DNA of 61,960 nt from contig JAFUTI010000033.1 of assembly GCA_017471465.1 (NCBI GenBank), positions 1 through 61,960 on the forward strand, written 5' to 3'. The notes beneath the pieces are model-generated. The model was given only the letters and a program-made list of their open reading frames with translations, had not been told where the DNA came from and ran no database searches. The translations under genes and the position numbers were made by a program. The stretch comes from Prevotella sp. GTDB lineage: Bacteria; Bacteroidota; Bacteroidia; Bacteroidales; Bacteroidaceae. Positions 5,807 through 20,819 of this stretch are shown here, piece after piece (within the stretch, counting starts at the first letter, position 1; the number at the start of each line of letters is the position of its first letter).

Positions 5807-6475
5807 CTATTTTCTTACAATGATTGCATTTGGATAGTTCTTAGGATTGAACTTGAAGACATTGTCACTCACGCCAAACTTGATCTTTGTCACAGTCATG
5901 GTCATCGACACGCCGCTCTGCTTGGCCTTCATCTCACGGAAATAGTACTTGTCCTTGTCAATCTTTACCACCATCTTCTTGGGGTCGTCCTTTTTGACGG
6001 GGTTCGTGAATGTCAACTCGTAGTACCGCCCGCTGACCTTTACTGTAGCGGTCTTATAATCTTTATCCACACTGAAGTCGATGTCATAGTCGCTTTCCGA
6101 CTTCTTGGTTGTCTTTTTGATGGTGAGGGTATCCTTGACTTCCTTGCCTTTCTTCTTGAGGTCGATATGCCGGTAACTCCATTCTTGTGTCCCGTCGAAG
6201 CCCTCCTCAGTCCTGACTTCCCTGCCTAATACTTTCATAAACATGGTGGCTTTCGTCTTTTCGTTTTTCATGGCCACAGTTGCAGTCATACCCGATAGTT
6301 TTACCACCATACGCGCTTCCATAGTCATCGTCATCTCCAGACCGGCGGGATTTGACATGACTTTCTCGCACTTCCGCATAATCTCCGTTACTTGCGGGTC
6401 TATCTGTGCCAGTGCACTCATTGTGCCGAATAGTGTCAGGATGACGGCAAGCATCCATAGTCTTGTCTGTTTCAT
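5807..6475 (-). CDS. LolA-like outer-membrane lipoprotein-sorting fold protein
   Basis: A 222-residue secreted protein with a signal peptide (MKQTRLWMLAVIL...SALAQ). The mature part starts with IMRKCEKVMSNPAGLEMTMTM and ends with KFGVSDNVFKFNPKNYPNAIIVRK, the pattern of Bacteroidota LolA-like proteins (half-barrel with a hydrophobic ligand groove). It may carry lipids or lipoproteins in the periplasm, though these paralogues are rarely characterised. The gene sits 11 bases after the VanX-like gene and 7 before the truncated membrane gene, in the envelope cluster. Its signal peptide belongs to the shared LWML family described in the findings. Confidence 0.7.
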   Translation of the reverse strand: MKQTRLWMLAVILTLFGTMSALAQIDPQVTEIMRKCEKVMSNPAGLEMTMTMEARMVVKLSGMTATVAMKNEKTKATMFMKVLGREVRTEEGFDGTQEWSYRHIDLKKKGKEVKDTLTIKKTTKKSESDYDIDFSVDKDYKTATVKVSGRYYELTFTNPVKKDDPKKMVVKIDKDKYYFREMKAKQSGVSMTMTVTKIKFGVSDNVFKFNPKNYPNAIIVRK

Positions 6476-6486
6476 TCAATTCTATT

Positions 6487-7296
6487 TCATTTAATCTGCT
6501 TGACGGGGAATGTGAAATAGGTATTGGGGAAGGGCTCGTTCTTCAGCGTGAAGTGCCACCACTCCGAGTCGAGGGGCTTGAAGCCGTGGGCGAGCATGGC
6601 GCGGCGCAGGATCATGCGGTTCTTGAACTGCTGCTCGGTGATGCTTCGCTTCGGCTCGGCAGGACTCTTGCTGTTATCGCCGGTGTATTCGCCCGTCTCG
6701 GGATTGCCGCAGAAATCGGGATGACTCTCAGGACCGAACCAGTCGAAGGTGCCGCCCATGTCCACCTCCTTCTCCGTTGCCATATCAAAGAGCGTCAGGT
6801 CAACGGTGCTGCCACGCGTGTGACCACTCTTCTCCATGATGTACTCTTGTTCAAAAAGGACGCTCTTGTCGAGGTCAGGATAGAAGTAGGGCTTCATCTT
6901 TGTGTCCGAGAGGTCGGCAGCCCAGCGCACGAAGTGGTCAACACCCTTCTGCGGACGGTAGGCATCGTAGATCTTCAAGCGATAGCCCTGCGACATCACG
7001 TCGTCGCTCACTTCCTTCAGGGCTTTTGCGGCCTGTTTGGTGAGCAGTGCCGTCGGCTCCTCATAGCCGTCGATGCGGGCTCCCACGAAGTTGTACGTAC
7101 CGTAGTAGCGAATCTCCAGGATGGCGTCGGGCACGGCTTCGCTAAGGGTTACAAACTGGCTGCTGTCATCGGTCGGACTGACAACAGGCGTGTCATCGTT
7201 GCTGTTACAACTGGTAATCACACATGCGCCGCAAACAACAGCAAAGACTGCGGCGAGCAGTAAATACTTTTTCATTTGCATATATGCTTTATTCAT
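6487..7296 (-). CDS. D-alanyl-D-alanine dipeptidase, VanX/DdpX family (M15D) lipoprotein
   Basis: A zinc dipeptidase of 269 residues. Motifs are YDAYRPQ (transition-state Arg), SGHTRGSTVDLTLF (zinc ligands His and Asp of SxHxxGxxxD) and SEWWHF (catalytic Glu and third ligand His). A lipobox (VITSC) follows the N-terminal hydrophobic stretch, placing it in the envelope; a start at the second or third Met gives the same mature protein. In Gram-negatives such enzymes recover D-Ala from peptidoglycan fragments, and there is no vanHA neighbour here, so resistance is not implied. The GH3 gene lies 239 bases upstream across a repeat. Confidence 0.88.
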   Translation of the reverse strand: MNKAYMQMKKYLLLAAVFAVVCGACVITSCNSNDDTPVVSPTDDSSQFVTLSEAVPDAILEIRYYGTYNFVGARIDGYEEPTALLTKQAAKALKEVSDDVMSQGYRLKIYDAYRPQKGVDHFVRWAADLSDTKMKPYFYPDLDKSVLFEQEYIMEKSGHTRGSTVDLTLFDMATEKEVDMGGTFDWFGPESHPDFCGNPETGEYTGDNSKSPAEPKRSITEQQFKNRMILRRAMLAHGFKPLDSEWWHFTLKNEPFPNTYFTFPVKQIK

Positions 7297-7529
7297 TCAA
7301 GTTTCGCATTTGCTCCGCTCGGCTCTGCCGCTTGCAAAGCAAGAACTTCTTTGTAGTTAAGGAGTTAAGTAGTTATCGCTTCGCTCGTCCTTTCGGACTG
7401 TAGTTAAGCCATTACTCTTCTCGCTGGTTTCTGCCGCCAGACATTTGGCTTCGCTCGGCTCTGCCGCTTGCAAGGCAAGAACTTCTATAACTACTGACTA
7501 CTTTACTACTTCAGAAAGTTGAATTTATT
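7295..7529. repeat. Intergenic repeat, copy 1 (with nested 35-bp duplication)
   Basis: The gap between the VanX-like and GH3 genes shares almost its whole length with 11649-11828: the edges (ATTCAAGTTTCGCATTTGCT and TCAGAAAGTTGAAT) and the core (TTATCGCTTCGCTCGTCC) are the same. This copy additionally carries two near-identical 35-base blocks, 7316-7350 and 7452-7486 (one A/G difference), starting CGCTCGGCTCTGCCGCTTG. No promoter box or ORF is evident inside. Confidence 0.85.
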
Positions 7530-7535
7530 CATATC

Positions 7536-8735
7536 TTATCTTCCTATTTGCTTTTTCAGTTTCAGTACGCGGTGTACGCTCTGGTCGATGCGCTGTTCGG
7601 TGAGCCTGCCGTCCTCCACGGCCTTGACTACGGCGTCGAAAGCCTCTACGAAGTTCTGCGGACCCAGCACGATGTCGGCACCGGCCTGGAGCGTACCGAC
7701 AGCGGCCTCTGCATTGGTGTACTGCCTGGTGATAGCACCCATCTCCATGGCATCGGTAATGATGATGTTCTGGTAGCCTAACTCTCCACGCAGTTTGTCC
7801 TGAAGGATGACAGACGACATGGTAGCGGGGATGTCCGAGCCCGTCACATTGGGCACGGCGATATGGGCTGTCATAATCAGCTGTGTGCCCCAGGTAATGC
7901 CCGCTTTGAAAGTCACCATCTCGCAGTCCAATATCTCTGCCCAAGTCTTCAGGCTTTGGGCATAGCCGTAGTGGGTGTCGGCCTTGGTGTCGCCGTGGCC
8001 GGGAAAGTGTTTGATGCACCCTGTCACACCGGCATCCTTCAGTCCCTGCAGGTAGTTAGTAACCATTGGAGCTGCCACAGCAGGATCGTCACTGAAAGCC
8101 CGCTTGCCTATTACTATATTCTCGGGGTTAGTGTTAACATCGGCAACAGGGGCAAAGTCCACGTCGAAACCGTATTTTTTAAGATATGTACCGATGGTGT
8201 TGCCGCAGTAGTATGCATTATCAGGGTTGCCAGTCTGGCCTATGGCATCCATCGACTCAAATATCTCTACGTCGAAGTTCGCATTATTACCGATACGGGC
8301 CACGCGGCCACCCTCCTCGTCGATGCAAAGCAGGGGCGAGCCGTTCAAGGCACGTAGCTGAGGGATGAAGGCCGCCAGTTGTGCCTCGTCCTCGATATTG
8401 TGGGCATAGAGGATGATGCCGCCCACAGGGTACTTCTCGTTCACGCCCAGCATCGTGGCGTTAACGGCCTGCAACTTGATAGCCTTGATGTCGTCAGCAC
8501 TGTTGTCCACGGTGCTGACCAGGTTAAAGTGAATAGTGGTGTCGAGACACTCTGGGCGCACGTAGAACAACTGCCCCACCTTTTCGCGCAGCGTCATCTT
8601 TTGTAGTTGCGCCTCCACCTCGTCGGTCGGTGCTGGTGGTGTTATGGGGTCATCGTCGTTCGAACACGATGTCAGTACACTTCCGCCGCTGATTACAAGG
8701 ATGGCGACTAGCATCCATAGCTTCATTTGTTTCAT
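7536..8735 (-). CDS. GH3 beta-N-acetylhexosaminidase (NagZ-like) lipoprotein
   Basis: A 399-residue family 3 glycoside hydrolase that would cut beta-linked N-acetylglucosamine, for example from peptidoglycan fragments. Key motifs are CIDEEGGRVARI, KHFPGHGDTKADTHYG (catalytic His/Asp loop special to NagZ-type GH3) and the nucleophile Asp328 in IIITDAMEMG. A lipobox (LTSC) in MKQMKLWMLVAIL... makes it an envelope lipoprotein rather than cytoplasmic NagZ. The ATG at 8735 is chosen; the upstream 18 codons lack a signal peptide and overlap the previous gene. Next to a D-Ala-D-Ala dipeptidase, a wall-fragment salvage role is plausible. Confidence 0.88.
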   Translation of the reverse strand: MKQMKLWMLVAILVISGGSVLTSCSNDDDPITPPAPTDEVEAQLQKMTLREKVGQLFYVRPECLDTTIHFNLVSTVDNSADDIKAIKLQAVNATMLGVNEKYPVGGIILYAHNIEDEAQLAAFIPQLRALNGSPLLCIDEEGGRVARIGNNANFDVEIFESMDAIGQTGNPDNAYYCGNTIGTYLKKYGFDVDFAPVADVNTNPENIVIGKRAFSDDPAVAAPMVTNYLQGLKDAGVTGCIKHFPGHGDTKADTHYGYAQSLKTWAEILDCEMVTFKAGITWGTQLIMTAHIAVPNVTGSDIPATMSSVILQDKLRGELGYQNIIITDAMEMGAITRQYTNAEAAVGTLQAGADIVLGPQNFVEAFDAVVKAVEDGRLTEQRIDQSVHRVLKLKKQIGR

Positions 8736-8736
8736 A

Positions 8737-9622
8737 TTACACTTTTTGTTTATTTTGACTCCACCTGCCAATGGCATAGCCGACGGCAAGTATGGCAGAA
8801 CAACAGATGCCTAACATGGTCACGGCTATCGACTTGACAAGCCACTCGGGATGTTTTGCCATTTGTTCATCAGTTATATCGATGACAGTAAACACAATAA
8901 TCAGAGCTACGATTGCTGCCACTACGGCGCAAAGCATTATGCGCCAAAGCGTGCCCCACAGTCCATAGCCAAACAGTTGGCAGTAAGTAATGAAGAAATA
9001 TAGCGGAATGAGTGCGAGTATAGGCGCGAAACATTCGGCAAGGGTAACAAAGATAAGAGCCAGCGTGCTGAGGAATACCTGAATGAAGAATCCTTGTGGC
9101 AGTTTGTGGGCTGTGTGGCGAATGGTGGAACAGTACCCATGTGGGCAGAATCATCGTGGAATAGATGATAAGGAAGCCCCAGCCCTGATTCTTTTCAGCC
9201 CAGTCGAGAAAGGTAATCACGGCATCCATTCCCTTTACCGACTGAGGCTCATCGTGCGAGTTGCCCAGCAGGTTGACTATGAGCGTACACACGATAGCCA
9301 CGATGAGAAGCATCTTCACTGGCGGGAAGCTAACCTGCCGCTTGCCTGTAATATAGTCGCGAATAAGGTAGCCAGGGCGCCAGAGCAGTTGCCACAGCGT
9401 GTAGGTCATGGAGCGTGTGCCCACGCCCCATATCTCCATCACATTCTCCCTGACGCTCGACCAGTTCACCGCGCCCAGCGTGGCCTTCTGTCCGCACTGC
9501 GGGCAGAAGTTGCCAACATACTCGCGATTGCAGTTGCAGCAGCGGTGGGTCTCTTCCTCGTTCATAGCATAGTGGAACGGATTCTCCTGCCACACCCTGA
9601 AACGCCTGTACTTCGTTCTCAT
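8737..9622 (-). pseudogene. DUF3667 membrane protein, frameshifted
   Basis: The N-terminal frame begins with a zinc-ribbon-like motif (Cys28/29, Cys31, Cys40, Cys43: CCNCNREYVGNFCPQCGQK) and two hydrophobic segments typical of DUF3667. After PTWVLFHHSPHSPQTAT it goes out of frame. In another frame the protein continues as GFFIQVFLSTLALIFVTLAE and on through membrane helices to the stop at 8737. Removing one T of the CCTTGT at plus 9092-9097 joins the frames as T-G-F-F-I. A one-base insertion, real or a sequencing error, therefore splits one gene of about 295 codons. The start could also be the Met 20 codons in. Confidence 0.75.
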
Positions 9623-9632
9623 TGTTTACTGT

Positions 9633-10244
9633 TTACAGGTCGCACTTATAGCCGATGGTCAGCGTCAGACAGCTATTGCGGATGCTGCCGGGTGTGCGCC
9701 AGCCGTTGCTGAACATGTCGCCCTTGTTCATCTTCGTCAGGCCCAGGTGGTAGCGCAACTCCACGAACCAGAGGTCATCATCGCTGTCAGTGTAGAACTG
9801 CCAGTTCAGGGCCACCGGCACCGAAAGGCTGACCGTCTTCAGTTGGTCGGTGTAGCTGATGTCGTTCATGCGTGCCGAGAGTATGAAGTCGGGCTGAATG
9901 CCGGCCTTCAGCGTGATGGGGCCAACCATGAAGTTGGCCAACAGCGGAACGCTGAGGACATCTAAATACATATTCTTGTCGATGACCGAGTAGTTCACAC
10001 CCTGATAGACGTTGGTCAATCCGATGGACGGGGCGAACCAGTCGGTCACGTTGTAGCCAATCTCACCATTCGCAGCAATTCCGATGCGACCTTTAGCGTC
10101 CTCAATGTCACCCGCGAAGGTTGACCACGATGCACCCAACCAAGCCGATGAGAACCACCCGCCCTGACGGGTCTGTGCATTCACGCTCACTGCGCCGCAG
10201 ACGGTAAGGATGGAGGCGAACATCCATAGTTTCATTTGTCTCAT
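9633..10244 (-). CDS. Outer-membrane beta-barrel protein (porin family)
   Basis: A 203-residue secreted protein with signal peptide MRQMKLWMFASIL...VNAQ. The mature part alternates short beta strands and turns (WLGASWSTFAGD, IGIAANGEIGYNV, LKAGIQPDFILSAR, SLSVPVALNWQFY) and ends in LTLTIGYKCDL, as expected for an eight- to ten-strand outer-membrane barrel of the PF13568 type. Specific function unknown. It sits between the alpha/beta hydrolase (20 bases) and DUF3667 (10 bases), inside the same minus-strand run. Confidence 0.75.
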   Translation of the reverse strand: MRQMKLWMFASILTVCGAVSVNAQTRQGGWFSSAWLGASWSTFAGDIEDAKGRIGIAANGEIGYNVTDWFAPSIGLTNVYQGVNYSVIDKNMYLDVLSVPLLANFMVGPITLKAGIQPDFILSARMNDISYTDQLKTVSLSVPVALNWQFYTDSDDDLWFVELRYHLGLTKMNKGDMFSNGWRTPGSIRNSCLTLTIGYKCDL

Positions 10245-10264
10245 CTGTCTCGTTTTCTAATTAA

Positions 10265-11638
10265 TTACAGGTCAAACAGTCCGGCTAACTCAGCAAACAG
10301 CTCCGGATTGGAGGCTACGTTGATGACAAGGTCGGCCAGCCCGTCGAGCAGGTCAACGAGATCTTGGTCTGTCTTGTACTCATCATCCTGCATATACATG
10401 AGCATGGCGGTGGTGAGTAGAAAGACGGGGACTCCGTTCTCGCAGTGGTTGCCGAAGTCGCGGAAGTCGGTAGTCAGCTTGGTGCAGCCTTTACTCTTGA
10501 GATAGTTAGCCATCTGTTCGCTGACGTGCCAGTCCATGTAGAGGTCGCCGGTGCTGTGCATCACGTAGTAGGAGGTCTGCGTGTCGGGCTGCCACGTAGC
10601 GTTGGCACCACAGAGCGACTTCTCAGCAAACTTGTCGTGCATCACCTTGCCAATGCCCTTTGTCCAGTCGCAGGCAGCGGGTGTCAGAATCTCGCTCACC
10701 TTCTTGTCAATGCCTATACGCTCGTTAATCTCGCTGGTGAGGTACTGTTTGGAGAGAATCCAGTCGGAGATATGGTCGCAGAGTGGTGGCAGGAAGATGT
10801 CCTTGTAGTCGAGGCCCAGATTGTAGGTTTCGTTGAAGCTTACCATGATGAGGGGCATGGAGCACACGTAGCCGGTGAAGTCGGTCTCGACATAGTTTTC
10901 ATAGACAGTGTTGATATCGTATGGTGAAGCACCGATGCCTGTGAAAGCAATGTGAATATCGGGGCGGTGCTCTGAGATGTACTTCTGGAAGCCCACGGCG
11001 AGCATGCCGCCGCTGCTGTAGCCCAGACTGTTGATGGGCAGGCCGTCCACATTGTAGCCCTTCTGCTTCAGAATCTCCATGGCGGCATCGTAGCAGTCGA
11101 GCTGTGCCACGGCGTTGATTTCGTGACAGCAGTAGGCCTGGGGGTTGTCCTTGGTGAGCGTCCAGCCGTAGTAGTCGCTACTGATGAGGATAACGTTGAA
11201 GTCATCGTTCATGTAGATACCAATATCGTTATAGCCCGCATCGAAGAGTTGCTCGTCTTTCTGAGCATGAGTCCACTGGTGGAATATGATCAACTGGTTG
11301 GGCTCTTCCGTTTTGTTGAAGATGTGGCGTGGCATGTTGATGGTGCCAGTCATACGCACAGGGGTCTTCAGGTCGGGGCCTACACTGGTGTATTCAAACT
11401 GAATTTGGTTCATTTCGGCGCGGAACATGTTGCCCATTGCACCGTCGAGTGCCACCAACTGGCGGTCATCGTTCAGAATCTTCCAGTCGAGGCTGTAGCT
11501 GCGCTGAGCCGTGCCAGGTACGCCGTCGTTATTGGCGGGCGCCACGGAGTTGTCGTCGTTGCTGCTGCACGAGGTCATCACCGTCTGGCCACAGAGTGCA
11601 AGTATGGCGGTAAGCATCCAGAATTTGTATTGTTTCAT
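10265..11638 (-). CDS. Alpha/beta-hydrolase lipoprotein (secretory lipase-like)
   Basis: A 457-residue lipoprotein (lipobox MTSC in MKQYKFWMLTAILAL...) with an alpha/beta-hydrolase fold. The nucleophile elbow is GYSSGG with Ser208. Downstream, YYVMHSTGDLYMDWHVSEQM and FGNHCENG are good candidates for the Asp and His regions. Substrate is unknown; the size and layout resemble secreted lipase/acetyl-esterase-like hydrolases. A repeat-filled gap separates it from a second, only distantly similar hydrolase upstream. Confidence 0.75.
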   Translation of the reverse strand: MKQYKFWMLTAILALCGQTVMTSCSSNDDNSVAPANNDGVPGTAQRSYSLDWKILNDDRQLVALDGAMGNMFRAEMNQIQFEYTSVGPDLKTPVRMTGTINMPRHIFNKTEEPNQLIIFHQWTHAQKDEQLFDAGYNDIGIYMNDDFNVILISSDYYGWTLTKDNPQAYCCHEINAVAQLDCYDAAMEILKQKGYNVDGLPINSLGYSSGGMLAVGFQKYISEHRPDIHIAFTGIGASPYDINTVYENYVETDFTGYVCSMPLIMVSFNETYNLGLDYKDIFLPPLCDHISDWILSKQYLTSEINERIGIDKKVSEILTPAACDWTKGIGKVMHDKFAEKSLCGANATWQPDTQTSYYVMHSTGDLYMDWHVSEQMANYLKSKGCTKLTTDFRDFGNHCENGVPVFLLTTAMLMYMQDDEYKTDQDLVDLLDGLADLVINVASNPELFAELAGLFDL

Positions 11639-11854: not shown

Positions 11855-13420
11855 TTACCAGAGGATGTTGCTGAAATAGCGTATGCCCGATTCCCATTTG
11901 TTGTTCAGCATCTCCTTTACATAATCGCCATGGTAGTATAAGAAGAAGGCTGTGCCTACGCTGACGTGGTCCTTGGTGTTGGAATCGTTGATCTCATATT
12001 TGCAGCAATTGTTATCAGAGCCCCAATGTCCTATCACCGAGAGCAGATTATCGTAGGGAACCACAAGATCCTTTTTGGCACTGAAGAAAGTGAACTTGGA
12101 GCCTGCGGGGGGTGTCCACCTGTCGCCATCCTCCTTGTACCAAAGGGCGTTCTTCTTGAGGCAGTGCTCGAGGATTTGCAGTTTTCTGGCCATAGTGGCA
12201 TTGGAGGGTACGGTGCCGTCGAGGAAGTAGAAGTAGGTGTCGTCGTTGAGCACACCGCGTGCGTGTGGCTTGCCTGCCCACTCATGTCCTGCGGGATATT
12301 TGGGAAAATTCCGTTCGAAGATGAGCATGTCCAGTTGATCTGTTGCTTTTTCCTTGCTGTCCATTGCCTCAAAGATTCCGGACTCTGTGACCAACGGGGT
12401 GCAAAAGTCACCGGGCTGTATGCCAGCGGTAATCATCTCCTGGTCGGTCTTGCACAGGCCATTGAGCATCAGCAGCGGCGCACAGGGCATCTGAAGGTAG
12501 TCTAATTCGCAGTAGGATTTCAATGTGGCGTATGGATCGTATGGGCCGTCGCCACAGATAGCACCCGTCCAACGAGGCAGTACCCAGTGCATCTCGGGAT
12601 GGTCGAGCCACCAACGGTAGGAGGCTGCCGAGACGGCACCGCCCTGGGAGTAGCCCACAGAGACAATTGTCCAATTATCTTTCAGATGGTGTCCGGTGTT
12701 GGTGTTGAACCATGCCTGTCCCCAGCAGGCGGCATCGACGCATTGCTTGGCTTGTACCTCGCGGCTGAGATAGGGGTGAACCCGGTCTTTGGTGCTGCCG
12801 TAGCCTTCGTAGTCAGGTACAATGACAAGGCAGTCAGTGCCAAAGGCAGAATATCCGGCCCATTTGTTGACAGCAACGGCAAAATCTGATGCCAGGCTTG
12901 TCAGGCCGTAGGTGGTGGGACGCTGGGCATCGCTGGTCACCGTACAATGGGTTACCAGGATGACATGTTCCGGGTCAGTCGTCTTCAAACCAAAAAATGC
13001 AGGATATGCTACCAAAGTGGACATGTTGATGGTGGAACCGTCGTAAGAAGTGGTTGGAACAGAGATCACTTCATATTTCAGTTTGCCAAATCCGAGGATA
13101 CCATTACCTCCCTCGGCGTTTTGTATGGAGTCACGGACGTGCTCCATCTCGGCCAACTGTTGTTGGTAGTATGCGATTTCATTCTCGCTGCCGTTGCCCG
13201 ACTGTGCTTCTTGAAGCGCATTCTGGTAATACTCGAACAAATCAATGATGCCCGATTCCGTCGGCTGAATGCTCTTCACCCTCTCCTCGATGTTGGCATA
13301 GGAATCGGTGGTGTTCGAGTTGTTGTCGTCATCGTCCGATGAACAGGCGGTGAACGTCGCGGTCATCAGGCTGCTTGTCAGGATGGCAGCCAGCATCCAT
13401 AGGAATCTCTTCGTTTTCAT
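11855..13420 (-). CDS. Alpha/beta-hydrolase lipoprotein, large
   Basis: A 521-residue lipoprotein (lipobox FTAC after MKTKRFLWMLAAIL). The Ser nucleophile lies in VGYSQGGAV (Ser258). GDRWTPPAGSKFTFFSAKKDLVVPYD and the C-terminal NTKDHVSVG region plausibly hold the acid and His. A helical stretch near residues 45-105 precedes the fold. The ATG at 13420 is preferred over the one 14 codons upstream because it starts a standard signal peptide. It lies 38 bases after the C13-protease gene. Probable secreted esterase/peptidase; substrate not deducible. Confidence 0.75.
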   Translation of the reverse strand: MKTKRFLWMLAAILTSSLMTATFTACSSDDDDNNSNTTDSYANIEERVKSIQPTESGIIDLFEYYQNALQEAQSGNGSENEIAYYQQQLAEMEHVRDSIQNAEGGNGILGFGKLKYEVISVPTTSYDGSTINMSTLVAYPAFFGLKTTDPEHVILVTHCTVTSDAQRPTTYGLTSLASDFAVAVNKWAGYSAFGTDCLVIVPDYEGYGSTKDRVHPYLSREVQAKQCVDAACWGQAWFNTNTGHHLKDNWTIVSVGYSQGGAVSAASYRWWLDHPEMHWVLPRWTGAICGDGPYDPYATLKSYCELDYLQMPCAPLLMLNGLCKTDQEMITAGIQPGDFCTPLVTESGIFEAMDSKEKATDQLDMLIFERNFPKYPAGHEWAGKPHARGVLNDDTYFYFLDGTVPSNATMARKLQILEHCLKKNALWYKEDGDRWTPPAGSKFTFFSAKKDLVVPYDNLLSVIGHWGSDNNCCKYEINDSNTKDHVSVGTAFFLYYHGDYVKEMLNNKWESGIRYFSNILW

Positions 13421-13458: not shown

Positions 13459-15885
13459 TCAATTATCTGTTGTAATAAATTCAGCGGGACTGGTGGCATA
13501 GAGGTTGCCGAAGCGGGCGGCGTTCACTATCTTCACGTGCGAGCCGATGGTGTTTCGGGCGCAGTAGAGGTAGAGGTCACGGTAGGTGGTCGTGGGGGCG
13601 GCAGTGAGGCAGTTCACGACGTTGCGGGTGAAGCGGTCGCACATCCATGTGCCCCATCGTCCCATCGACGGGTTCCAATTCTCGGCCCACGACTGCTCGC
13701 TGCCGTTGGCACCGCTGATGGCGAGTACGCCGGGGATGCCCTCGACTCGACGGATGACATTCTCGCTGAAGCATGGCTCGGTGACGATGAACATCTTGCG
13801 GTAGCGGCCCTCGGCCTGCATCCGGCTTACGGTCTCGTGCATCAGGTCAGCAGTGAAGCCATGCCCGGCGGCATTGTCGCGCCACACCAGTTCGTCGGCG
13901 CCGCCAGCAGCCTTGCTGCGGCCGTGACCGCTCCAGTAGAGCAGCACGTTTTGCCCCGCATCGGCGGGCAGCACGGTGGGGGTGCGGTCGGACGCCTTGC
14001 CCAACAGGATGTTGGCGATGTCGGCAGGTGTCAGGTCGGCGGCGGCGTAATCCACCACGGCAGCAGGCCAGCCCTCGACGGCGTCGGTGCCGCCCAAGAG
14101 GTCAGGACCGAACGCGCTGCTGCGGATGATGCCCTGTTCGGGGTTCTCGGGGTCGGAAGCCAAGGCGCGGTCGATGATGAGGATGATGTGGTCGTCGTCC
14201 ATTCCGCCGTGGCGCAACATCTGATAGACGCTGAGCACGTCGGCCTGATGGCGGTAGTTAGTCAACCCGTTAGAACCCTGCACGAGCACGGCGTAGCGGT
14301 CGGTGACCGGGGGGTACTGCGGGACGGTGCTCTCGGTGGCCATCTCGCTGAACGCTTCGAGGGCGGCCTTCTCGTCGTAGATAAATTTCCAGGCGGCGTT
14401 GGAACTGGCCACATTGTCGCTGCCCACGTCGCCGAAGTAACCGCGGTGAATGACCTGTCCGTCGAGTATCTGCCAGTGCAGATAGGTGGTGCTGGTGGCG
14501 GTGGTGTAGGTCTCCAGGTCGAAGCGTATGGCACCCGAGGCGCCACGGAACGTGTATTGCTCGCTGCGGCGGTCCTCGATGGCTTTGAGATACTGCGCCA
14601 TGGGGGTGGGCGCCCAGGCCGTGAGCGCCGCGTTCTCGTTGAAGACACTGGTGAGATAGATGATAGAGGCTATGATGCTCTCGTTGCGGGTCATGACCGC
14701 TTCGAGGTCGTTGTGCTCGGCATAGCAGGCGGCGAAGCCGGCGAGCATCAGTGCGTCGTAGAACTTGCACTCGGCGAAGGTGGGACTCTGGCCAAACTTG
14801 GCGCGGTAGCTGGTCTCGAAGCCCGTGGTGGGGTCGGCATAGGGCGAGAAGCCCTGGTAGCCCTGCAGCACGGCCGCGCCGCGCTCGCCGAGGGCATCTG
14901 TGATGTCGTCGCTGATGTCGTTGAAGGCGAAGTAGGTCTGCATCGTGTTGGCGAACATCTGCCATTGCTCGTCGTTGGCAGGGTCGTCGGGGTCGGTGGA
15001 GGGCAGGATGAGGCTGAAGGTCTCGTCGGAGGTGAACCACTGCCGGCGCAGGCGGGCTACGTCGTATAGTTGCTGCGCCGACTCCACCACGCAGAAGGTG
15101 GCGGTGGTGCCTGCACCGGTACTCTTGCGTACCTCGTCCATGTAGCTCTTCAGCCTTGTGGTCAAGTCCTCGGTGCCGGCATATTGCTCGTTGCGTAGCA
15201 GCGTGATGCCACCGTCCTCGGCGTAGAAAGGCGCCCAGTAGTTGAAGGTCTGCCCATAGACGCCCTCGGGCGCGAAGACGGCGGCCTCGGCTCTCATGAC
15301 TCCGCTGTAATACTGCACCTCAGTGGCGTAGCCGCTCATGAGCACGTCGGTGAAGGCCACGTCGGTCTCGGTGAGCGCCCAGAGGAAGGGCTTTTTGTTG
15401 AACTGACTGGCGCTGCCCGCATTCGAGACGGCATAGCGGCGGATGACCTCCTCGCTGGTGGCCGTCGGTGCGATGAGGGGCTTGAGCGTCGGCTGGCAGG
15501 CGGCGGCGAAGATGGCTACGTCATCGTTGGCGAAGGGACCGATGATGGCGGTCAGCGTAGTGTCGGCAGCCAGATGTCTGCTCAGGGCAGCCATGTCCTC
15601 GCTCTGCTCGTCGTACCATTCGAGCTTCAGCGCTACGGTCAGCGTGTCATTGAGTTGCGCCTCGCGGAAGTTGTCGAGGAACCACTGCGCCGTGCGCTCC
15701 AGCCGCTCCTTCGTAGCGGCATCGCCCAGCGGCGCCACCACGGCCACCGTGCGCTCCACCCAGTGCCGCTGCGGCTGATAGACGATGGTGTCGTCCTCCT
15801 GTTTACAGGAAGCGAAGAGTGTCAGCAGGAGCAGTATTGCTGCTACAAACCTCTTACTTCTTACATCATACTTCTTACTTCTCAT
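13459..15885 (-). CDS. Lipoprotein fusing type I periplasmic-binding fold to legumain-like C13 cysteine protease
   Basis: An 808-residue lipoprotein (lipobox FASC, Cys27). Residues about 45-500 look like a receptor-type ligand-binding region (VAVVAPLGD, TAIIGPFANDDVAIFAAACQPTLKP, the bilobed layout of branched-chain amino-acid-binding proteins). Residues about 590-790 match family C13 (legumain/GPI8): IILIIDRALASDPENPEQGII, VDYAAADLTPADI, NVLLYWSGHG (catalytic His654) and KMFIVTEPCFSE (catalytic Cys705), then GVLAISGANGSEQSWAENW. Both dyad residues are present. The ATG at 15885 overlaps the stop of the upstream BMP-type gene by 11 bases, so the two are coupled. The gene is much richer in GC than its downstream neighbours. 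A ligand-controlled surface or periplasmic protease is my inference. Confidence 0.82.
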   Translation of the reverse strand: MRSKKYDVRSKRFVAAILLLLTLFASCKQEDDTIVYQPQRHWVERTVAVVAPLGDAATKERLERTAQWFLDNFREAQLNDTLTVALKLEWYDEQSEDMAALSRHLAADTTLTAIIGPFANDDVAIFAAACQPTLKPLIAPTATSEEVIRRYAVSNAGSASQFNKKPFLWALTETDVAFTDVLMSGYATEVQYYSGVMRAEAAVFAPEGVYGQTFNYWAPFYAEDGGITLLRNEQYAGTEDLTTRLKSYMDEVRKSTGAGTTATFCVVESAQQLYDVARLRRQWFTSDETFSLILPSTDPDDPANDEQWQMFANTMQTYFAFNDISDDITDALGERGAAVLQGYQGFSPYADPTTGFETSYRAKFGQSPTFAECKFYDALMLAGFAACYAEHNDLEAVMTRNESIIASIIYLTSVFNENAALTAWAPTPMAQYLKAIEDRRSEQYTFRGASGAIRFDLETYTTATSTTYLHWQILDGQVIHRGYFGDVGSDNVASSNAAWKFIYDEKAALEAFSEMATESTVPQYPPVTDRYAVLVQGSNGLTNYRHQADVLSVYQMLRHGGMDDDHIILIIDRALASDPENPEQGIIRSSAFGPDLLGGTDAVEGWPAAVVDYAAADLTPADIANILLGKASDRTPTVLPADAGQNVLLYWSGHGRSKAAGGADELVWRDNAAGHGFTADLMHETVSRMQAEGRYRKMFIVTEPCFSENVIRRVEGIPGVLAISGANGSEQSWAENWNPSMGRWGTWMCDRFTRNVVNCLTAAPTTTYRDLYLYCARNTIGSHVKIVNAARFGNLYATSPAEFITTDN

Positions 15886-16963
15886 ATTCTGCCTCCTTCC
15901 TAATAGCTTCCTCGCGAATGCCCTCCCACTTCGCGTCGGGCAGTAGTTCATCGAAAGCCTCTTGCATAGTTGTACCGTAGGGATGCAGGATGACGTCCGT
16001 GTAGCCGTCGGCCATGCCCAGCGACTGGTGCTTCGGCATCCCCTCGCCCGAGAACCAGCTGCCGATTGTGCTGATGACAGCATTGTCAACATGCTTCACC
16101 ACCGAGTAATGGCATCGGGCTGATGTCTTCTTGCTGTCGATGCCCACATACTGGTAGCCGCCGATCAACTCTGTAAGGCGGAAGAACGTGTTTGCCGCGC
16201 CGCCGCAGACAGGCATGAGCAGACGGTTAGAGGATTCCCATTCCTCCTCCGGCTCTGCCATGATGCGAAGGGCGGTGGAATCGGCCACGCTGAAGCCATC
16301 GCCATTCTCCTCGGCTATGTATCCGCTGACGAGCACCTTCTCGTCATCGGTCGTGATGTAGTCTGTACCGAAACCGTCGGCAAAACCCTGCATAGCCTCG
16401 GCCACGGCCTTGTCCTTGGGGTTGGCTCCCAGAAGCAGCACGTCGCCGGCCACGATGGGCGCAATGGCTCCGGCAGCATACATCGCCCCGTAGTAGGGCA
16501 TATAGAGCGTAGAGCCTTTGCCGCTGAGCGGCGTGCTGGTCTCTAAGTATAGAAGGTCGGCGCGCGGGTTGGCCTCTATACGCTGGCTGTTCTGCCGCAC
16601 CTCCTCATCGTAGAGCGTGCTGGCCACGATGAGCAGACGGCGCACAGTGTCCGTGGCGGCACTCATCTCGGCGATGGTCTGTTCCAGGAAGATGCGTCCA
16701 CCGTCGCCGGTGATGGGCGAGAGGTGGAGCGTGCGCAGCCCCATCATGGCGGCCGCCTCCTCTACGCCCTGATAGACAAGGTCGTTGTACGACTGGTCGC
16801 CAATGCCGTCGGGGGCATAGAGCACCGTGACGAGCGGCGCCCCACTGCTCTGGTCGTTCGGGTCAGGCTCATAGATGATGTCGCCGTCCTTCGTGCAGGC
16901 CGCAAGCAGCAACGCCGCCAAGGATGCCAAGAATGCCAAGGATGGCAAGGATAGTCTTTTCAT
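15875..16963 (-). CDS. BMP family (Med/PnrA-like) substrate-binding lipoprotein
   Basis: A 362-residue lipoprotein (lipobox LLAAC, Cys23) with a type I periplasmic-binding fold like basic membrane proteins that bind nucleosides: VTVLYAPDGIGDQSYNDLVYQGVEEA (typical GIGDxSFN motif), a central MPYYGAMYAAGAIAPIVAG segment (the family's GAxAGxxA region) and VGIDSKKTSARCHYSVVKHVDNAV. No ABC permease or ATPase is adjacent, so it may sense rather than feed a transporter. The ATG at 16963 is chosen for the signal peptide. Translational coupling to the C13-fusion gene suggests a two-protein unit. Confidence 0.82.
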   Translation of the reverse strand: MKRLSLPSLAFLASLAALLLAACTKDGDIIYEPDPNDQSSGAPLVTVLYAPDGIGDQSYNDLVYQGVEEAAAMMGLRTLHLSPITGDGGRIFLEQTIAEMSAATDTVRRLLIVASTLYDEEVRQNSQRIEANPRADLLYLETSTPLSGKGSTLYMPYYGAMYAAGAIAPIVAGDVLLLGANPKDKAVAEAMQGFADGFGTDYITTDDEKVLVSGYIAEENGDGFSVADSTALRIMAEPEEEWESSNRLLMPVCGGAANTFFRLTELIGGYQYVGIDSKKTSARCHYSVVKHVDNAVISTIGSWFSGEGMPKHQSLGMADGYTDVILHPYGTTMQEAFDELLPDAKWEGIREEAIRKEAEYEK

Positions 16964-17000: not shown

Positions 17001-17031
17001 CAAAGGTACATATTTTCCCACACGCGCGCAA
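17001..17031 (-). promoter_or_regulatory. Promoter of the BMP/C13 lipoprotein operon
   Basis: On the minus strand TTG (plus 29-31 of 17000), 20 bases, then TACCTTTG (plus 17001-17008), an exact TTG-N20-TAnnTTTG promoter, 38 bases before the ATG at 16963. No other clear box is seen in the gaps down to 5.8 kb, so it may serve much of the cluster. Confidence 0.7.
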
Positions 17032-17122
17032 TAATGTACAAAAATAAGCAAGTCGTTTGCAAAAATTAGCAATCCCCACAGCAAACAAACTGCGGGGATT
17101 GTTATTCGGTTGAATCACTTGG

Positions 17123-18715
17123 TTAGTTCTGCTTTTGCAACTCCCTGAACTCGCTGGGGCTGAGTTCGTACTTCACCTTGAAGTCGTGATTGAAAGTGGT
17201 AACGCGCGAGAATCCTGAGGCAGCGGCAATATCGGCAATACTCATGGTGGAGTCGCGCAGCAGTCGGCAGGCGTACTTCAACCGGCACTCGCGAATGAAG
17301 TCAGGCAACGACTTGTAGGGACTGCCTTGTGTGAAGGCTGTACCGATGCGGCGACTGCTGATGCCGAAATGAGCAGCAGCGGCCTCGCGGTCGAACAGCG
17401 GTTGGAGATACAACTGTTGGCTGATGATGGCCTGACTGATTTGCAGGAACAATTGCTCGTTTGTCATCGATTCGGAGATTTCAGCCGTCGTCTCAGGCTC
17501 TTGTTCTGCTGTGATGTGTTCTCTCTCAACAGATTTGTGTTTCTCTTCAGGCGGCAGCAGTTCTGAAATCTGCTTGGCAATAACGCGGTTTTTCTTCCGG
17601 ATGATGCGATGATGGCGAAAGAGGATGAACAGTATGAGTAGCAACAGCACTACTACTACAGACAAGCCGATGGTTATCTGGCGTGCATAATGTACCTCAG
17701 TCTTGTGCTGTTCTATCTCCATCTGCTGCTCGTAGTCTCGGAAGCGAGCTTCGTCCAGGTCATGAAAAATGGAGTCCATCTTGGCGGTCTCGCCCAGCAG
17801 GCACAGCGTCGGAATGATGAAATGACGCCCTGCCTGCGTCTGACCATAGCCGCTCTGCTCGTAGAGGTCGAGATACCTGCGTGACTGCTGCTGATTGCCC
17901 TGTCGGGCATACGCCTCGGCCAGATAGCCGTAGGCCCTGTTGCGATAGAAGTCGATATAGCCGGCGCGGTCTTCGTCGGCGGGTTCGCGGTAACTGCCGT
18001 CACGATAGTCGTCGGGGTGCTGCTCATAGTCGGCGAGCCTGTCCAACATGCTTTGGGCAACGGGAATGATGTCGGCATGACGCCCGGTCTCATTCAATAC
18101 ACCCACCTTACGTTTGAGCGCTATCATGGAGGCATCCAGTTCGTTGAACTTCCTCTTGCCGTCAAGAGCGGCTATCACGCTGTCTATCTTGGCAAGTCCT
18201 TCCCGCAGATGCCCCGTATGAGTCAGCGCCACGCCCATCTCAGCCTCGCTCCTCAGGGCTTCCGTCTCGTCGCCGTTCTCATGGAACAGCGTCACCAGCT
18301 CGGCCGTCCATCTCAGTATCCGCGCGTCGTCGTTGTTCCGCCGGCAGGCATTCACGAGGGTTTCTAATACATCCTGACGGTACTCATGGTTCTCGCGGGC
18401 CACGTCGAGCAGCATCAGCCGCTCACAGATGGCGATGGCCGAGTCCAGCCGCGTGCTCTCCAACGACTGGCAGTAGACCTTGGCGCGCAGCCAGTCGGTC
18501 TCGTAGTCCGCCATCCCCTCGGCGCGCAGCGAGTCAATCGTCTGCAGTGCCTGCTCAGGCCTGTCGGCAGTCAGTTCCATCACCTGTGCCGCCGCCTGCT
18601 TCACGTCTATCGCTGAACCGTCGCGCTTCTGACCGTCGTGCCCGTCAGCGCAGCCTGTCATCAGCACGACCATAACACCTATTAAAAAAAAACTCCTAAA
18701 TGCCATTTTTTCCAT
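17123..18715 (-). CDS. Membrane-anchored TPR/AraC-type transcriptional regulator
   Basis: A 530-residue one-component regulator. The N-terminus is a signal/lipobox-like segment (MVVLMTGCAD), residues about 40-350 are TPR-like helical repeats facing outside, a strong membrane helix spans about 352-372 (ITIGLSVVVVLLLLILFILF), and the C-terminal 100 residues are an AraC helix-turn-helix (RECRLKYACRLLRDSTMSIADIAAASGFSRVTTFNHDFKVKYELSPSEFR). This layout is common in Prevotella-like bacteria. It reads into the BMP/C13 lipoprotein operon (16963), making that operon an obvious candidate target. Start could be three codons later. Confidence 0.85.
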   Translation of the reverse strand: MEKMAFRSFFLIGVMVVLMTGCADGHDGQKRDGSAIDVKQAAAQVMELTADRPEQALQTIDSLRAEGMADYETDWLRAKVYCQSLESTRLDSAIAICERLMLLDVARENHEYRQDVLETLVNACRRNNDDARILRWTAELVTLFHENGDETEALRSEAEMGVALTHTGHLREGLAKIDSVIAALDGKRKFNELDASMIALKRKVGVLNETGRHADIIPVAQSMLDRLADYEQHPDDYRDGSYREPADEDRAGYIDFYRNRAYGYLAEAYARQGNQQQSRRYLDLYEQSGYGQTQAGRHFIIPTLCLLGETAKMDSIFHDLDEARFRDYEQQMEIEQHKTEVHYARQITIGLSVVVVLLLLILFILFRHHRIIRKKNRVIAKQISELLPPEEKHKSVEREHITAEQEPETTAEISESMTNEQLFLQISQAIISQQLYLQPLFDREAAAAHFGISSRRIGTAFTQGSPYKSLPDFIRECRLKYACRLLRDSTMSIADIAAASGFSRVTTFNHDFKVKYELSPSEFRELQKQN

Positions 18716-19553: not shown

Positions 19554-19584
19554 TTGGCTGATAATAAACAAATAAGTAACTTTG
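19554..19584 (+). promoter_or_regulatory. Promoter of the COG0523 metallochaperone gene
   Basis: TTG (19554-19556), 20 bases, TAACTTTG (19577-19584): an exact TTG-N20-TAnnTTTG promoter, 26 bases ahead of the ATG at 19611. No Zur/Fur-like palindrome stands out. Confidence 0.7.
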
Positions 19585-19610
19585 CACCCCAAAAGTTAAA
19601 AAACGAGATT

Positions 19611-20819
19611 ATGAACATGAAAGAAATTCCTGTGCTGCTGCTGACAGGCTATCTGGGCAGCGGCAAAACGACTTTACTGAACCGTATACTGTCAAACAAG
19701 CGCGGCATCAAGTTTGCCGTCATCGTCAACGACATCGGCGAGGTGAATATTGACGCAGACCTCATTGAGAAAGGGGGTATCGTGAACGAGCAGGACGACT
19801 CGCTGGTTGCCCTGCAGAACGGCTGCATCTGCTGCACGCTGAAGATGGACCTGGTGAAACAGCTGCAGGACATCATCGAGATGGAGCGCTTCGACTATAT
19901 CGTCATCGAGGCCAGCGGCATCTGCGAGCCAGGCCCCATCGCCCAGACCATCTGTTCGATTCCCCAGATGGCACCCGACATGGCGTGCCAGCCCCGTCTT
20001 GACGCTATCGTCACCGTTGTCGACGCCCTCCGTATGAAGGACGAGTTCGGCAGCGGTCTCGACCTGAAACGCCAGAACATCGAGGAGGAGGATATCGAGA
20101 ACCTCGTCATCCAGCAGATAGAGTTCTGTAACATCATCCTGCTGAACAAGGCCGCTGAGGTGAGCGCCGACGAACTGGGACGCATCCGCGGCATCGTCCG
20201 TGAGATACAGCCGAAGGCCGAGATCATCGACTGCAACTACGGTGACGTAGAACTCGACAAGATTATCAACACCCAGTTGTTCGACTTCGACGAGGTGGCT
20301 ACGTCGGCCACCTGGATTCAGGAAGTGGAGCGCCACGAAGAGGACGATGACGACGACGATGACGACGAACATGAGCACGAACATGAGCACGAACACGAGC
20401 ATGAGCATCATCACCACCACCATCACCACCACGACGACGAAGGCGAGGCCGAGGAATACGGCATCGGCACCTACGTCTACTACGCCCGCCGTCCCTTCCA
20501 CATCGGACTGTTCGACGAGTTCGTCGCCCGCAAATGGCCCAAGGGCATCATCCGCGCCAAGGGCATCTGCTGGTTCAAGGACGAGCCGGAGATCTGCTAC
20601 GTCTTCGAACAGGCCGGCAAACAGGTCAGTCTGCGCAATGCCGGACAGTGGTATGCCACGATGCCCAAGGACGAGCTGGAGCAGCTGATGGAACAGCAGC
20701 CCAGCCTGCGCCGCGACTGGGACGAGCAGTATGGCGACCGTATGCAGAAGCTCGTCTTCATCGGCCAGCACCTCGACAAAGAACTGATAGCCCGCGAGCT
20801 GGACTTCTGCTTAGTATAG
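19611..20819 (+). CDS. COG0523 (CobW/ZNG1-type) metal-chaperone GTPase with Asp/His tract
   Basis: A 402-residue G3E-family GTPase that likely delivers zinc or another metal to client proteins. Walker A GYLGSGKT (13-20), the metal-site motif GCICC (71-75), IVIEASGICEPGPI (switch/Walker B region), LLNKAAEV (NKxD-like guanine motif, here NKAA) and a C-terminal CobW domain (RPFHIGLFDEFV). Between them (about 242-280) is an acidic/His tract: eight Asp, six alternating His-Glu pairs, then nine consecutive His. Such tracts buffer metals. The ATG at 19611 is preferred over upstream codons because it follows the promoter and begins the GTPase fold. Its neighbours are unrelated. Confidence 0.9.
   Translation: MNMKEIPVLLLTGYLGSGKTTLLNRILSNKRGIKFAVIVNDIGEVNIDADLIEKGGIVNEQDDSLVALQNGCICCTLKMDLVKQLQDIIEMERFDYIVIEASGICEPGPIAQTICSIPQMAPDMACQPRLDAIVTVVDALRMKDEFGSGLDLKRQNIEEEDIENLVIQQIEFCNIILLNKAAEVSADELGRIRGIVREIQPKAEIIDCNYGDVELDKIINTQLFDFDEVATSATWIQEVERHEEDDDDDDDDEHEHEHEHEHEHEHHHHHHHHHDDEGEAEEYGIGTYVYYARRPFHIGLFDEFVARKWPKGIIRAKGICWFKDEPEICYVFEQAGKQVSLRNAGQWYATMPKDELEQLMEQQPSLRRDWDEQYGDRMQKLVFIGQHLDKELIARELDFCLV

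What the first reader, a model, noticed from the sequence alone, without database searches (positions are those of the whole stretch)
13459..16963. Receptor-like lipoprotein fused to a legumain-type (C13) protease, coupled to a BMP-type binding lipoprotein
The sequence shows an N-terminal type I periplasmic-binding region and a C-terminal caspase-fold protease with both catalytic residues (His654 in SGHG, Cys705 in EPCFSE) in a single lipoprotein. The gene before it, overlapping by 11 bases, is another type I binding lipoprotein without any ABC transporter. A ligand-gated protease, or a paired sensor, is a plausible new arrangement.
Basis: partly seen in the sequence, partly recalled or inferred. 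Interest (0 to 1): 0.8.

Follow-up and report, generated by a model that had tools for sequence, protein, structure and literature searches.

The report
Receptor-fused protease of bacterial toxin operons
A rumen bacterium carries a membrane-anchored protein that joins what looks like a small-molecule receptor to a protein-cutting domain; relatives of this gene pair often sit beside pore-forming toxin genes that carry a plausible cutting site for it, so it may be a switch that arms surface weapons.

Summary
Window 13459-15885 (-) encodes an 808-aa lipoprotein with a C-terminal Peptidase_C13 domain (E 2.8e-35; His654, Cys705). Its N-terminal part matches no Pfam model alone, but 18 of 27 relatives match ANF_receptor (E 0.001). 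The overlapping upstream gene is Bmp/PnrA-like (5 of 26 relatives at E 0.001). The fusion matches in 72 of 399 genomes of the window's family, 63 at full length. The partner precedes it in 71 of 79 dereplicated loci with room. New here: 45 of 52 MACPF pore-former matches in fusion-bearing genomes lie within 12 kb of it (0.64 expected). Other loci, the window included, carry hydrolase-like or uncharacterised lipoproteins, or no recognised cargo (31 of 82). Linked MACPFs have an acidic-Asn motif just after their BACON stalk (19 of 27, against 0 of 33 other BACON domains), as would suit an Asn-specific C13 protease; unlinked MACPFs show it less (24 of 32 against 6 of 24, another count). Best reading: a surface, possibly ligand-gated, protease that processes effectors encoded beside it. 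Six literature searches listed no paper on it.

The parts
13459..15885 (-). Fusion lipoprotein (PBP-C13), 808 aa
15805..15807 (-). Lipobox Cys27 codon, followed by KQEDD (acid-rich)
   Evidence: Cys in 81 of 82 rows
14386..15762 (-). Type I periplasmic-binding (ANF_receptor-like) region, residues about 42-500 (limits approximate)
   Evidence: ANF_receptor in 18 of 27 members at E 0.001, not in the window's own copy; PDB 4gnr E 1.9e-12 by profile
13525..14298 (-). Peptidase_C13 (legumain-type) domain, residues 530-787
   Evidence: PF01650 E 2.8e-35; profile against human legumain E 8.5e-54
14251..14253 (-). Arg545 in NYRHQAD, aligned with the NYRHQAD of legumain
   Evidence: R in 82 of 82 rows; alignment; role in the S1 pocket recalled
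13924..13926 (-). Catalytic His654 codon
   Evidence: H in 80 of 82
13771..13773 (-). Catalytic Cys705 codon
   Evidence: C in 80 of 82
15875..16963 (-). BMP/PnrA-like lipoprotein, 362 aa, overlaps the fusion gene by 11 bases
   Evidence: upstream of the fusion in 71 of 79 loci with room
11855..13420 (-). Hydrolase-like lipoprotein 1 (likely ATG at 13420; ORF from TTG 13462), GYSQGG motif, SSDDDD after Cys
   Evidence: weak PF03583 match E 0.033, below cut-off; family member by profile
13193..13195 (-). Asn codon (AQSGNGSE) of hydrolase-like lipoprotein 1; column Asn in 11 of 11 aligned; weak candidate cleavage site
10265..11638 (-). Hydrolase-like lipoprotein 2, GYSSGG motif
   Evidence: PF03583 E 4.6e-4, 20 bits against a cut-off of 23
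17001..17008 (-). TACCTTTG, fits the Bacteroidetes -7 element TAnnTTTG (recalled); 27 such octamers in the window, so weak
17070..17101 (-). Terminator-like hairpin (13 pairs, T tail) between the regulator gene and the pair
   Evidence: 5 terminator-like sites in the region against 6.4 expected in shuffles
17123..18715 (-). Upstream regulator with a membrane segment (by eye) and C-terminal AraC-type HTH (HTH_18); probably a separate transcription unit
   Evidence: E 1e-15

Best explanation
The pair is a surface-anchored processing module for effector lipoproteins encoded next to it. SHOWN by sequence: a lipoprotein with a receptor region of the amino-acid-binding-protein kind (through relatives) fused to a legumain-type C13 domain with its dyad intact; a co-encoded Bmp/PnrA-like lipoprotein; strong linkage in relatives to MACPF pore-formers; exchangeable cargo (MACPF, a 790-aa BACON-like lipoprotein, hydrolase-like lipoproteins as in the window). 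INFERRED, in order of confidence: (1) the parts sit on the outer face of the outer membrane; (2) the C13 domain cuts cargo after Asn in an acidic linker and so frees or arms the effector from its lipid-anchored stalk, while the smaller MACPF partner keeps the TR site used by C11 proteases, so that two proteases may be needed; (3) binding of a small molecule (amino-acid-like by fold class) by the receptor region, perhaps helped by the Bmp-like partner (nucleoside-like by family), switches the protease on. In the window the cargo would be the two hydrolases.
For: Fusion and dyad. Receptor region. Partner. Pair: BMP-like gene directly upstream in 67 of 79 loci with room (82 dereplicated of 85; 3 without room), and split or masked in 4 more = 71 of 79; 56 of 67 gaps are overlaps and 16 are exactly -11 (some overlaps reflect my choice of the first start codon). 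Linkage: 45 of 52 MACPF matches, 21 of 25 clusters, within 12 kb of a fusion match; 0.64 expected at random. Co-occurrence: MACPF in 24 of 72 genomes with and 14 of 327 without the fusion (Fisher 5.6e-11; genomes are related, and I take the two draws of 399 to be the same). MACPF identity: Pfam MACPF in 35 of 38 at E 0.01; profile hits solved proteins named insecticidal protein (6fbm, 3.5e-22), complement C6 and perforin-1. Cleavage site: acidic-Asn motif in the 16 residues after BACON in 19 of 27 linked MACPFs against 0 of 33 other BACON domains; 7.3 expected in shuffled tails, 0 of 20000 shuffles reach 19; linker column Asn in 15 of 17 large MACPFs, Q and D in the other two; DPENA also in both readable linkers of a locus of another family, found later. 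Surface sign: mean D/E fraction at +2 to +7 is 0.36-0.48 in the module's lipoproteins, 0.21 in other neighbours, counting those my lipobox rule recognised. Precedent: a C11 surface protease activates CDCL pairs (PMC11169675, abstract and section 15); C11 proteases activate BcpT at LTR sites, and the MACPF toxin BSAP-3 was treated with DpnB to activate it (PMC9308784, passages).
Against: No cleavage, binding or killing has been seen. The motif was written after looking at the sequences, and linked MACPFs are homologues, so counts are not independent events. Against unlinked MACPFs the contrast is weaker: 24 of 32 linked stalked linkers against 6 of 24 unlinked (Fisher 3.5e-4), 6 of 16 linked short ones also match, and 11 of 32 linked stalked linkers contain an Arg motif as well, so the split Asn/Arg is not clean. 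The 33 control BACON domains are often tandem copies in one protein, and none was an unlinked MACPF. 31 of 82 loci show no recognised cargo, 15 of them in stretches that were not cut short; 8 of 79 lack the partner. The window's genome (63% complete) has no MACPF and no C11 match. The Asn in hydrolase 1 is one of two invariant Asn columns of that alignment. The cleft residues were not shown to bind anything; the fold was not predicted.
Confidence: 0.45

Rival explanations
1. The protease processes its neighbours, but the receptor region is only a docking or substrate-recruiting module and the Bmp-like protein a co-factor or immunity lipoprotein; there is no ligand gating.
For: All cargo evidence above; the receptor region is less conserved than the protease (mean column identity 38% over 27 members, 45% over 32 protease domains; different member sets).
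Against: Positions that align with ligand-binding stretches of amino-acid binding type I domains (roles recalled) are kept: 143 is T in 68 and S in 10 of 82, 149 is R in 81 of 82. Two folds of small-molecule-binding kind in one conserved pair suggest sensing.
Confidence: 0.22
2. A surface nutrient protease: cuts proteins or peptides after Asn and captures products with its binding domains; the linkage to toxins reflects clustering of surface lipoproteins.
For: Binding folds of nutrient-uptake type; 31 of 82 loci have no recognised cargo.
Against: ABC-ATPase signature in 0 of 82 loci; 45 of 52 MACPF matches linked; acidic-Asn linkers.
Confidence: 0.15
3. A transpeptidase in the manner of GPI transamidase or plant peptide ligases that attaches cargo to a surface amine instead of releasing it.
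For: The C13-domain profile also matches GPI transamidase (E 6.6e-48) and plant peptide ligases.
Against: Human legumain scores best (E 8.5e-54); most cargo already carries a lipobox, so needs no second anchor.
Confidence: 0.08
4. A self-protection device: the pair destroys or blocks incoming toxins of kin, and sits beside toxin genes as immunity.
For: A surface lipoprotein gives immunity to CDCL (PMC11169675 abstract); c1 lipoproteins lie between MACPF genes and the pair in many loci.
Against: The Asn motif is kept in the toxins of the same operon, where immunity by cleavage would select against it; the pair also occurs without recognised toxins.
Confidence: 0.1

Closest known systems
Legumain / Peptidase family C13 (PF01650)
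   Same: Pfam match over cut-off, His/Cys dyad, NYRHQAD and E-x-C motifs, profile E 8.5e-54 to human legumain
   Different: Bacterial lipoprotein; N-terminal receptor region instead of the C-terminal prodomain of legumain (recalled); the chain ends 21 residues after the domain
C11 surface proteases of Bacteroidales (fragipain, DpnA/DpnB)
   Same: Surface cysteine proteases that activate secreted toxins (PMC8406203 abstract; PMC11169675 section 15; PMC9308784 passages)
   Different: Another family that cuts at LTR/QTR (PMC9308784); in the 15 genomes with a C11 match none lies within 20 kb of a MACPF match (nearest about 27 kb, G032). Here C13, receptor-fused, encoded with the toxin
BSAP / MACPF and CDCL antibacterial toxins of Bacteroidota
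   Same: Linked cargo of relatives is MACPF lipoprotein, in part with BACON stalk (22 of 38; profile); BACON stalks occur in a small part of BSAPs (PMC12853789 passages); CDCLs come in pairs or triplets (PMC11169675 section 6)
   Different: Sets of two or three unequal MACPFs with a dedicated protease pair; the window itself has none
Bmp/PnrA (TmpC) binding lipoproteins, PF02608
   Same: Profile match to 2fqw, Bmp in 5 of 26 at E 0.001
   Different: No ABC-ATPase signature seen nearby; paired with a protease
Receptors with type I binding domains (ANF_receptor; metabotropic glutamate and taste receptors)
   Same: Profile matches, e.g. 5x2m E 3.5e-5, and bacterial 4gnr E 1.9e-12
   Different: Output domain is a protease in the same chain, with no membrane span seen between (by eye)

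Membership tests
Peptidase family C13 | Match to the curated model over cut-off | tested here: met
   122.5 bits against 22.8
Peptidase family C13 | Catalytic His (HG) and Cys (E-x-C) aligned with legumain | tested here: met
Peptidase family C13 | Substrate-pocket residues of legumain (Arg, Glu, Asp; roles recalled) | tested here: inconclusive
   Arg545 82 of 82; 703 is E in 73 and D in 7 of 82; third site read by eye as Asp750, D in 28 and N in 51 of 82
Peptidase family C13 | Cleavage or ligation after Asn/Asp | not testable with these tools
   needs enzyme assay
Legumain proper | C-terminal prodomain with autoactivation (recalled) | tested here: not met
   protein ends at 808, domain at 787; so C13 member but not legumain
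Type I periplasmic binding domain | Match to ANF_receptor/Peripla_BP models | tested here: inconclusive
   18 and 15 of 27 members at E 0.001, the window's own copy none; profile match to 4gnr
Type I periplasmic binding domain | Two-lobed fold | not tested
   prediction switched off
Bmp/PnrA family | Match to PF02608 | tested here: inconclusive
   5 of 26 family members at E 0.001, best 4e-19; not the window's copy
ABC transporter binding protein | Transporter genes beside it | tested here: not met
   ABC-ATPase signature in 0 of 82 loci within 8 kb, same strand, by a motif rule; permeases not sought
MACPF/BSAP toxin locus | MACPF gene in the locus | tested here: not met
   none in the window's genome; met in 21 of 82 loci (profile labels)

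The most novel reading that the evidence does not exclude
A bacterial receptor-protease: a small-molecule signal caught by a type I binding domain (with a Bmp-like co-receptor) switches on a fused legumain-type protease at the cell surface, which releases and arms pore-forming or lipolytic effectors from their lipid-anchored stalks. That would be signal-triggered launching of a complement-like weapon outside the cell, without transcription.
Probability: 0.28. Interest if true: 0.92.

Novelty: new variant of a known kind. Interest (0 to 1): 0.74.

Why it matters
In the papers I saw, proteolytic activation of Bacteroidales toxins goes through general C11 proteases. A protease dedicated to its operon, of another family, fused to a receptor and with a matching site in the toxin, would show how such weapons can be put under control of a chemical cue, and gives defined sites, ligand-binding domains and cargo for direct tests. 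It would also link legumain-type proteases, which I know mainly from eukaryotes, to bacterial competition.

Tried and rejected
Family limited to one genus: a single-sequence search found the fusion only in genus g1 (13 of 119 genomes); the profile matched in 14 of 30 genera of the family (72 of 399 genomes; by my reading of the rows 53 in one full-length piece, 10 in two pieces of one frame, 9 partial or broken, counted). In an order-wide draw 35 of 247 genomes match: G000, two genomes of other families in full (G944, G950) and 32 in part only. Other C13 in the class: 49 of 395 genomes match PF01650 at E 0.001, 28 over its cut-off, but only G000 and G493 strongly; the next best E is 7.3e-9, and most rows cover only part of the model around the His motif.

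Plasmid or phage carriage: no match in either collection. Anti-phage system: no PADLOC match for 8 proteins. NCBIfam has no model over its cut-off for either window protein. The 790-aa cargo c5 as a diverged MACPF: profile comparison matches MACPFs only over the lipoprotein leader and BACON-like first 120 columns, no structure match, so not claimed. c1 lipoproteins: no Pfam match under E 0.01 for those scanned, no credible structure match. One origin for each cargo: on the quick tree MACPF, c5 and hydrolase need 7 changes at the least (long branches meet in that tree).

Weak points kept: Asn motif defined after inspection. Rows dropped: two regex artefacts and near-identical linkers (90 rows before), with contig-broken L215 and L216 set apart; three duplicate loci and fusions under 600 aa; repeats with the same tail, and 7 more domains of linked loci (7 of 7 with the motif) kept out of the test. 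Near-copies remain (L155/L172, L128/L129, L160/L173). Contigs of G736 and G767 were counted as unlinked, though broken contigs are likely.
Full report
WHAT IS THERE. The window lies in a 2.4-Mb draft genome (63% complete); the best match among named records is an uncultured rumen Prevotella contig (83% best-segment identity, residues 1-808 matched). On the minus strand, 16963-15875 encodes a 362-aa lipoprotein and 15885-13459 an 808-aa lipoprotein, overlapping by 11 bases. The second ends in a Peptidase_C13 domain (E 2.8e-35) with His654 and Cys705. Two hydrolase-like lipoproteins follow (likely start 13420, and 11638), with GYSQGG and GYSSGG motifs; their Pfam matches are below cut-off. A terminator-like hairpin and a TACCTTTG octamer separate the pair from the AraC-type regulator upstream (both weak).

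DOMAINS. The N-terminal region and the Bmp-like partner of the window match nothing on their own (no NCBIfam model over its cut-off). Relatives do in part: ANF_receptor in 18 of 27 and Peripla_BP_6 in 15 of 27 at E 0.001, Bmp in 5 of 26; at E 1 the counts are 24, 18 and 10. Profiles match the solved amino-acid binding protein 4gnr at E 1.9e-12, taste and glutamate receptors more weakly, and TmpC at E 2.1e-5. A profile of 32 C13 domains matches human legumain at E 8.5e-54 and GPI transamidase at 6.6e-48. Over 82 dereplicated rows, window included, position 654 is H in 80, 705 C in 80, 545 R in 82, 27 C in 81.

SPREAD AND PAIRING. A profile of the whole fusion matches in 72 of 399 genomes of the window's family, 14 of 30 genera; 63 of the 72 have it at full length in one or two pieces of a frame. 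In an order-wide draw of 247, two genomes of other families have it in full. Of 85 fusions of 600 aa or more, 82 remained after removal of duplicates; 3 had no room upstream; 67 of 79 have the Bmp-like gene directly upstream, and 4 of the other 12 have it split or hidden by my ORF choice, so 71 of 79. Eight lack it. An ABC-ATPase signature lies within 8 kb on the same strand in 0 of 82. Some genomes carry several copies; G032 has eight places, some in tandem.

CARGO. Neighbours, up to five genes upstream and three downstream, fall into recurring sets (labels by profiles built here): MACPF in 21 of 82 loci, a 790-aa BACON-like lipoprotein (c5) with c1 lipoproteins in 11, hydrolase-like genes in 10 more, c1 alone in 9, nothing recognised in 31, of which 16 are in stretches cut short. 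Pfam confirms MACPF in 35 of 38 proteins so labelled, BACON in 22 (E 0.01), and the profile hits solved proteins such as 6fbm (3.5e-22), complement C6 and perforin-1. In the 72 genomes there are 52 MACPF matches; 45 (21 of 25 clusters) lie within 12 kb of a fusion match, where random placing would give 0.64. MACPF occurs in 24 of 72 genomes with the fusion and 14 of 327 without (related genomes, so the P value is only a guide). On a quick tree the three cargo types need at least 7 changes, so the pair seems to stay while cargo is exchanged. A full operon, as in G886, reads MACPF (482 aa), MACPF (581), MACPF (781), c1, Bmp-like, fusion.

A CANDIDATE CLEAVAGE SITE. The large linked MACPFs are lipid anchor, BACON stalk, short linker, MACPF domain. 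The linker holds an acidic-Asn motif such as EDGTNS or DDDANA. In 17 of them the aligned column is N in 15, Q and D in the others. In the 16 residues after BACON the motif occurs in 19 of 27 linked MACPFs against 0 of 33 other BACON domains from ten chosen genomes, many of them tandem copies; no unlinked MACPF was among the 33. Shuffled tails give 7.3 on average and never 19 in 20000. A locus of another family, found afterwards, has DPENA in both readable linkers, which are near-copies. The short linked MACPFs instead carry an Arg motif, mostly TR-A/G/T (15 of 16), as do 15 of 24 unlinked ones; LTR and QTR are sites of C11 proteases (PMC9308784, passages), and 15 of 16 genomes chosen for the test have a C11 match, the window's genome none. 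Against this: the direct contrast with unlinked MACPFs is weaker, 24 of 32 against 6 of 24, and 11 of the 32 also hold an Arg motif. The motif was chosen after inspection and the proteins are related, so this is a strong lead, not proof.

MECHANISM. Lipoproteins of the module carry acid-rich residues after the Cys (mean D/E fraction 0.36-0.48 against 0.21 in other neighbours, among those my rule recognised), which in Bacteroidota is a surface-export sign (recalled). The simplest reading is a surface protease that cuts its neighbours' effectors after Asn, as C11 proteases do after Arg for CDCLs (PMC11169675: abstract, sections 6 and 15), with the receptor region and the Bmp-like partner as the likely control. 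For the window itself the step is more indirect: its cargo would be the hydrolases, where one Asn near the N-terminus is invariant in 11 of 11 aligned, weak evidence by itself, as a second column is invariant too.

PRINT. Searches for legumain or C13 with Bacteroidetes, Prevotella, MACPF, BACON, BSAP or binding-protein fusions listed no paper on this arrangement that I could recognise from titles and abstracts; lists were capped and the library holds open-licence papers only. Seen: PMC11169675 abstract and sections 6 and 15; PMC9308784 and PMC12853789 passages; PMC8406203 abstract and outline; the rest as listings.

VERDICT. The finding gains weight from the toxin linkage and the linker motif. 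I rate it a new variant of proteolytically activated effector systems, with a bolder receptor-protease reading open.

Noticed in passing
window 5807-11638 (-): Several of the genes in this run, otherwise unrelated, share nearly the same leader (MKQ-x-K/R-LWML-x-AIL and variants; by eye); similar leaders recur at genes of other loci (e.g. L057, L044).
   Followed up: no
window 7536-8732 (-): Lipoprotein with glycoside hydrolase family 3 N-terminal domain downstream of the hydrolase pair; whether it belongs to the operon is unknown.
   Followed up: no
L041, L042, L044, L046, L047, L048, L195 (G032): One genome has eight places with the fusion, tandem Bmp-fusion pairs and long arrays of c1 lipoproteins, as in an expanding variable locus.
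   Followed up: partly
L046:10426-11280: A 284-aa remnant that matches the MACPF profile and both ends of the fusion profile: looks like a deletion hybrid of cargo and protease genes.
   Followed up: no
L038:7739-12742: A fusion gene in two pieces with two reverse-strand ORFs between, one of them resembling an insertion-element transposase (by eye).
   Followed up: no
L177:4588-13986 and L178:3952-13537: Arrays of six genes labelled MACPF in genomes where the single-sequence search found no fusion (profile not tried there).
   Followed up: partly
A7 (c1 family), e.g. L040:10927-12030: Uncharacterised lipoprotein family with a GDV...YVCVR-like motif beside MACPF or c5 genes; candidate immunity or receptor component.
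   Followed up: partly
window 19554-20819 (+): CobW-type GTPase with a long His/Glu/Asp-rich stretch (by eye).
   Followed up: no
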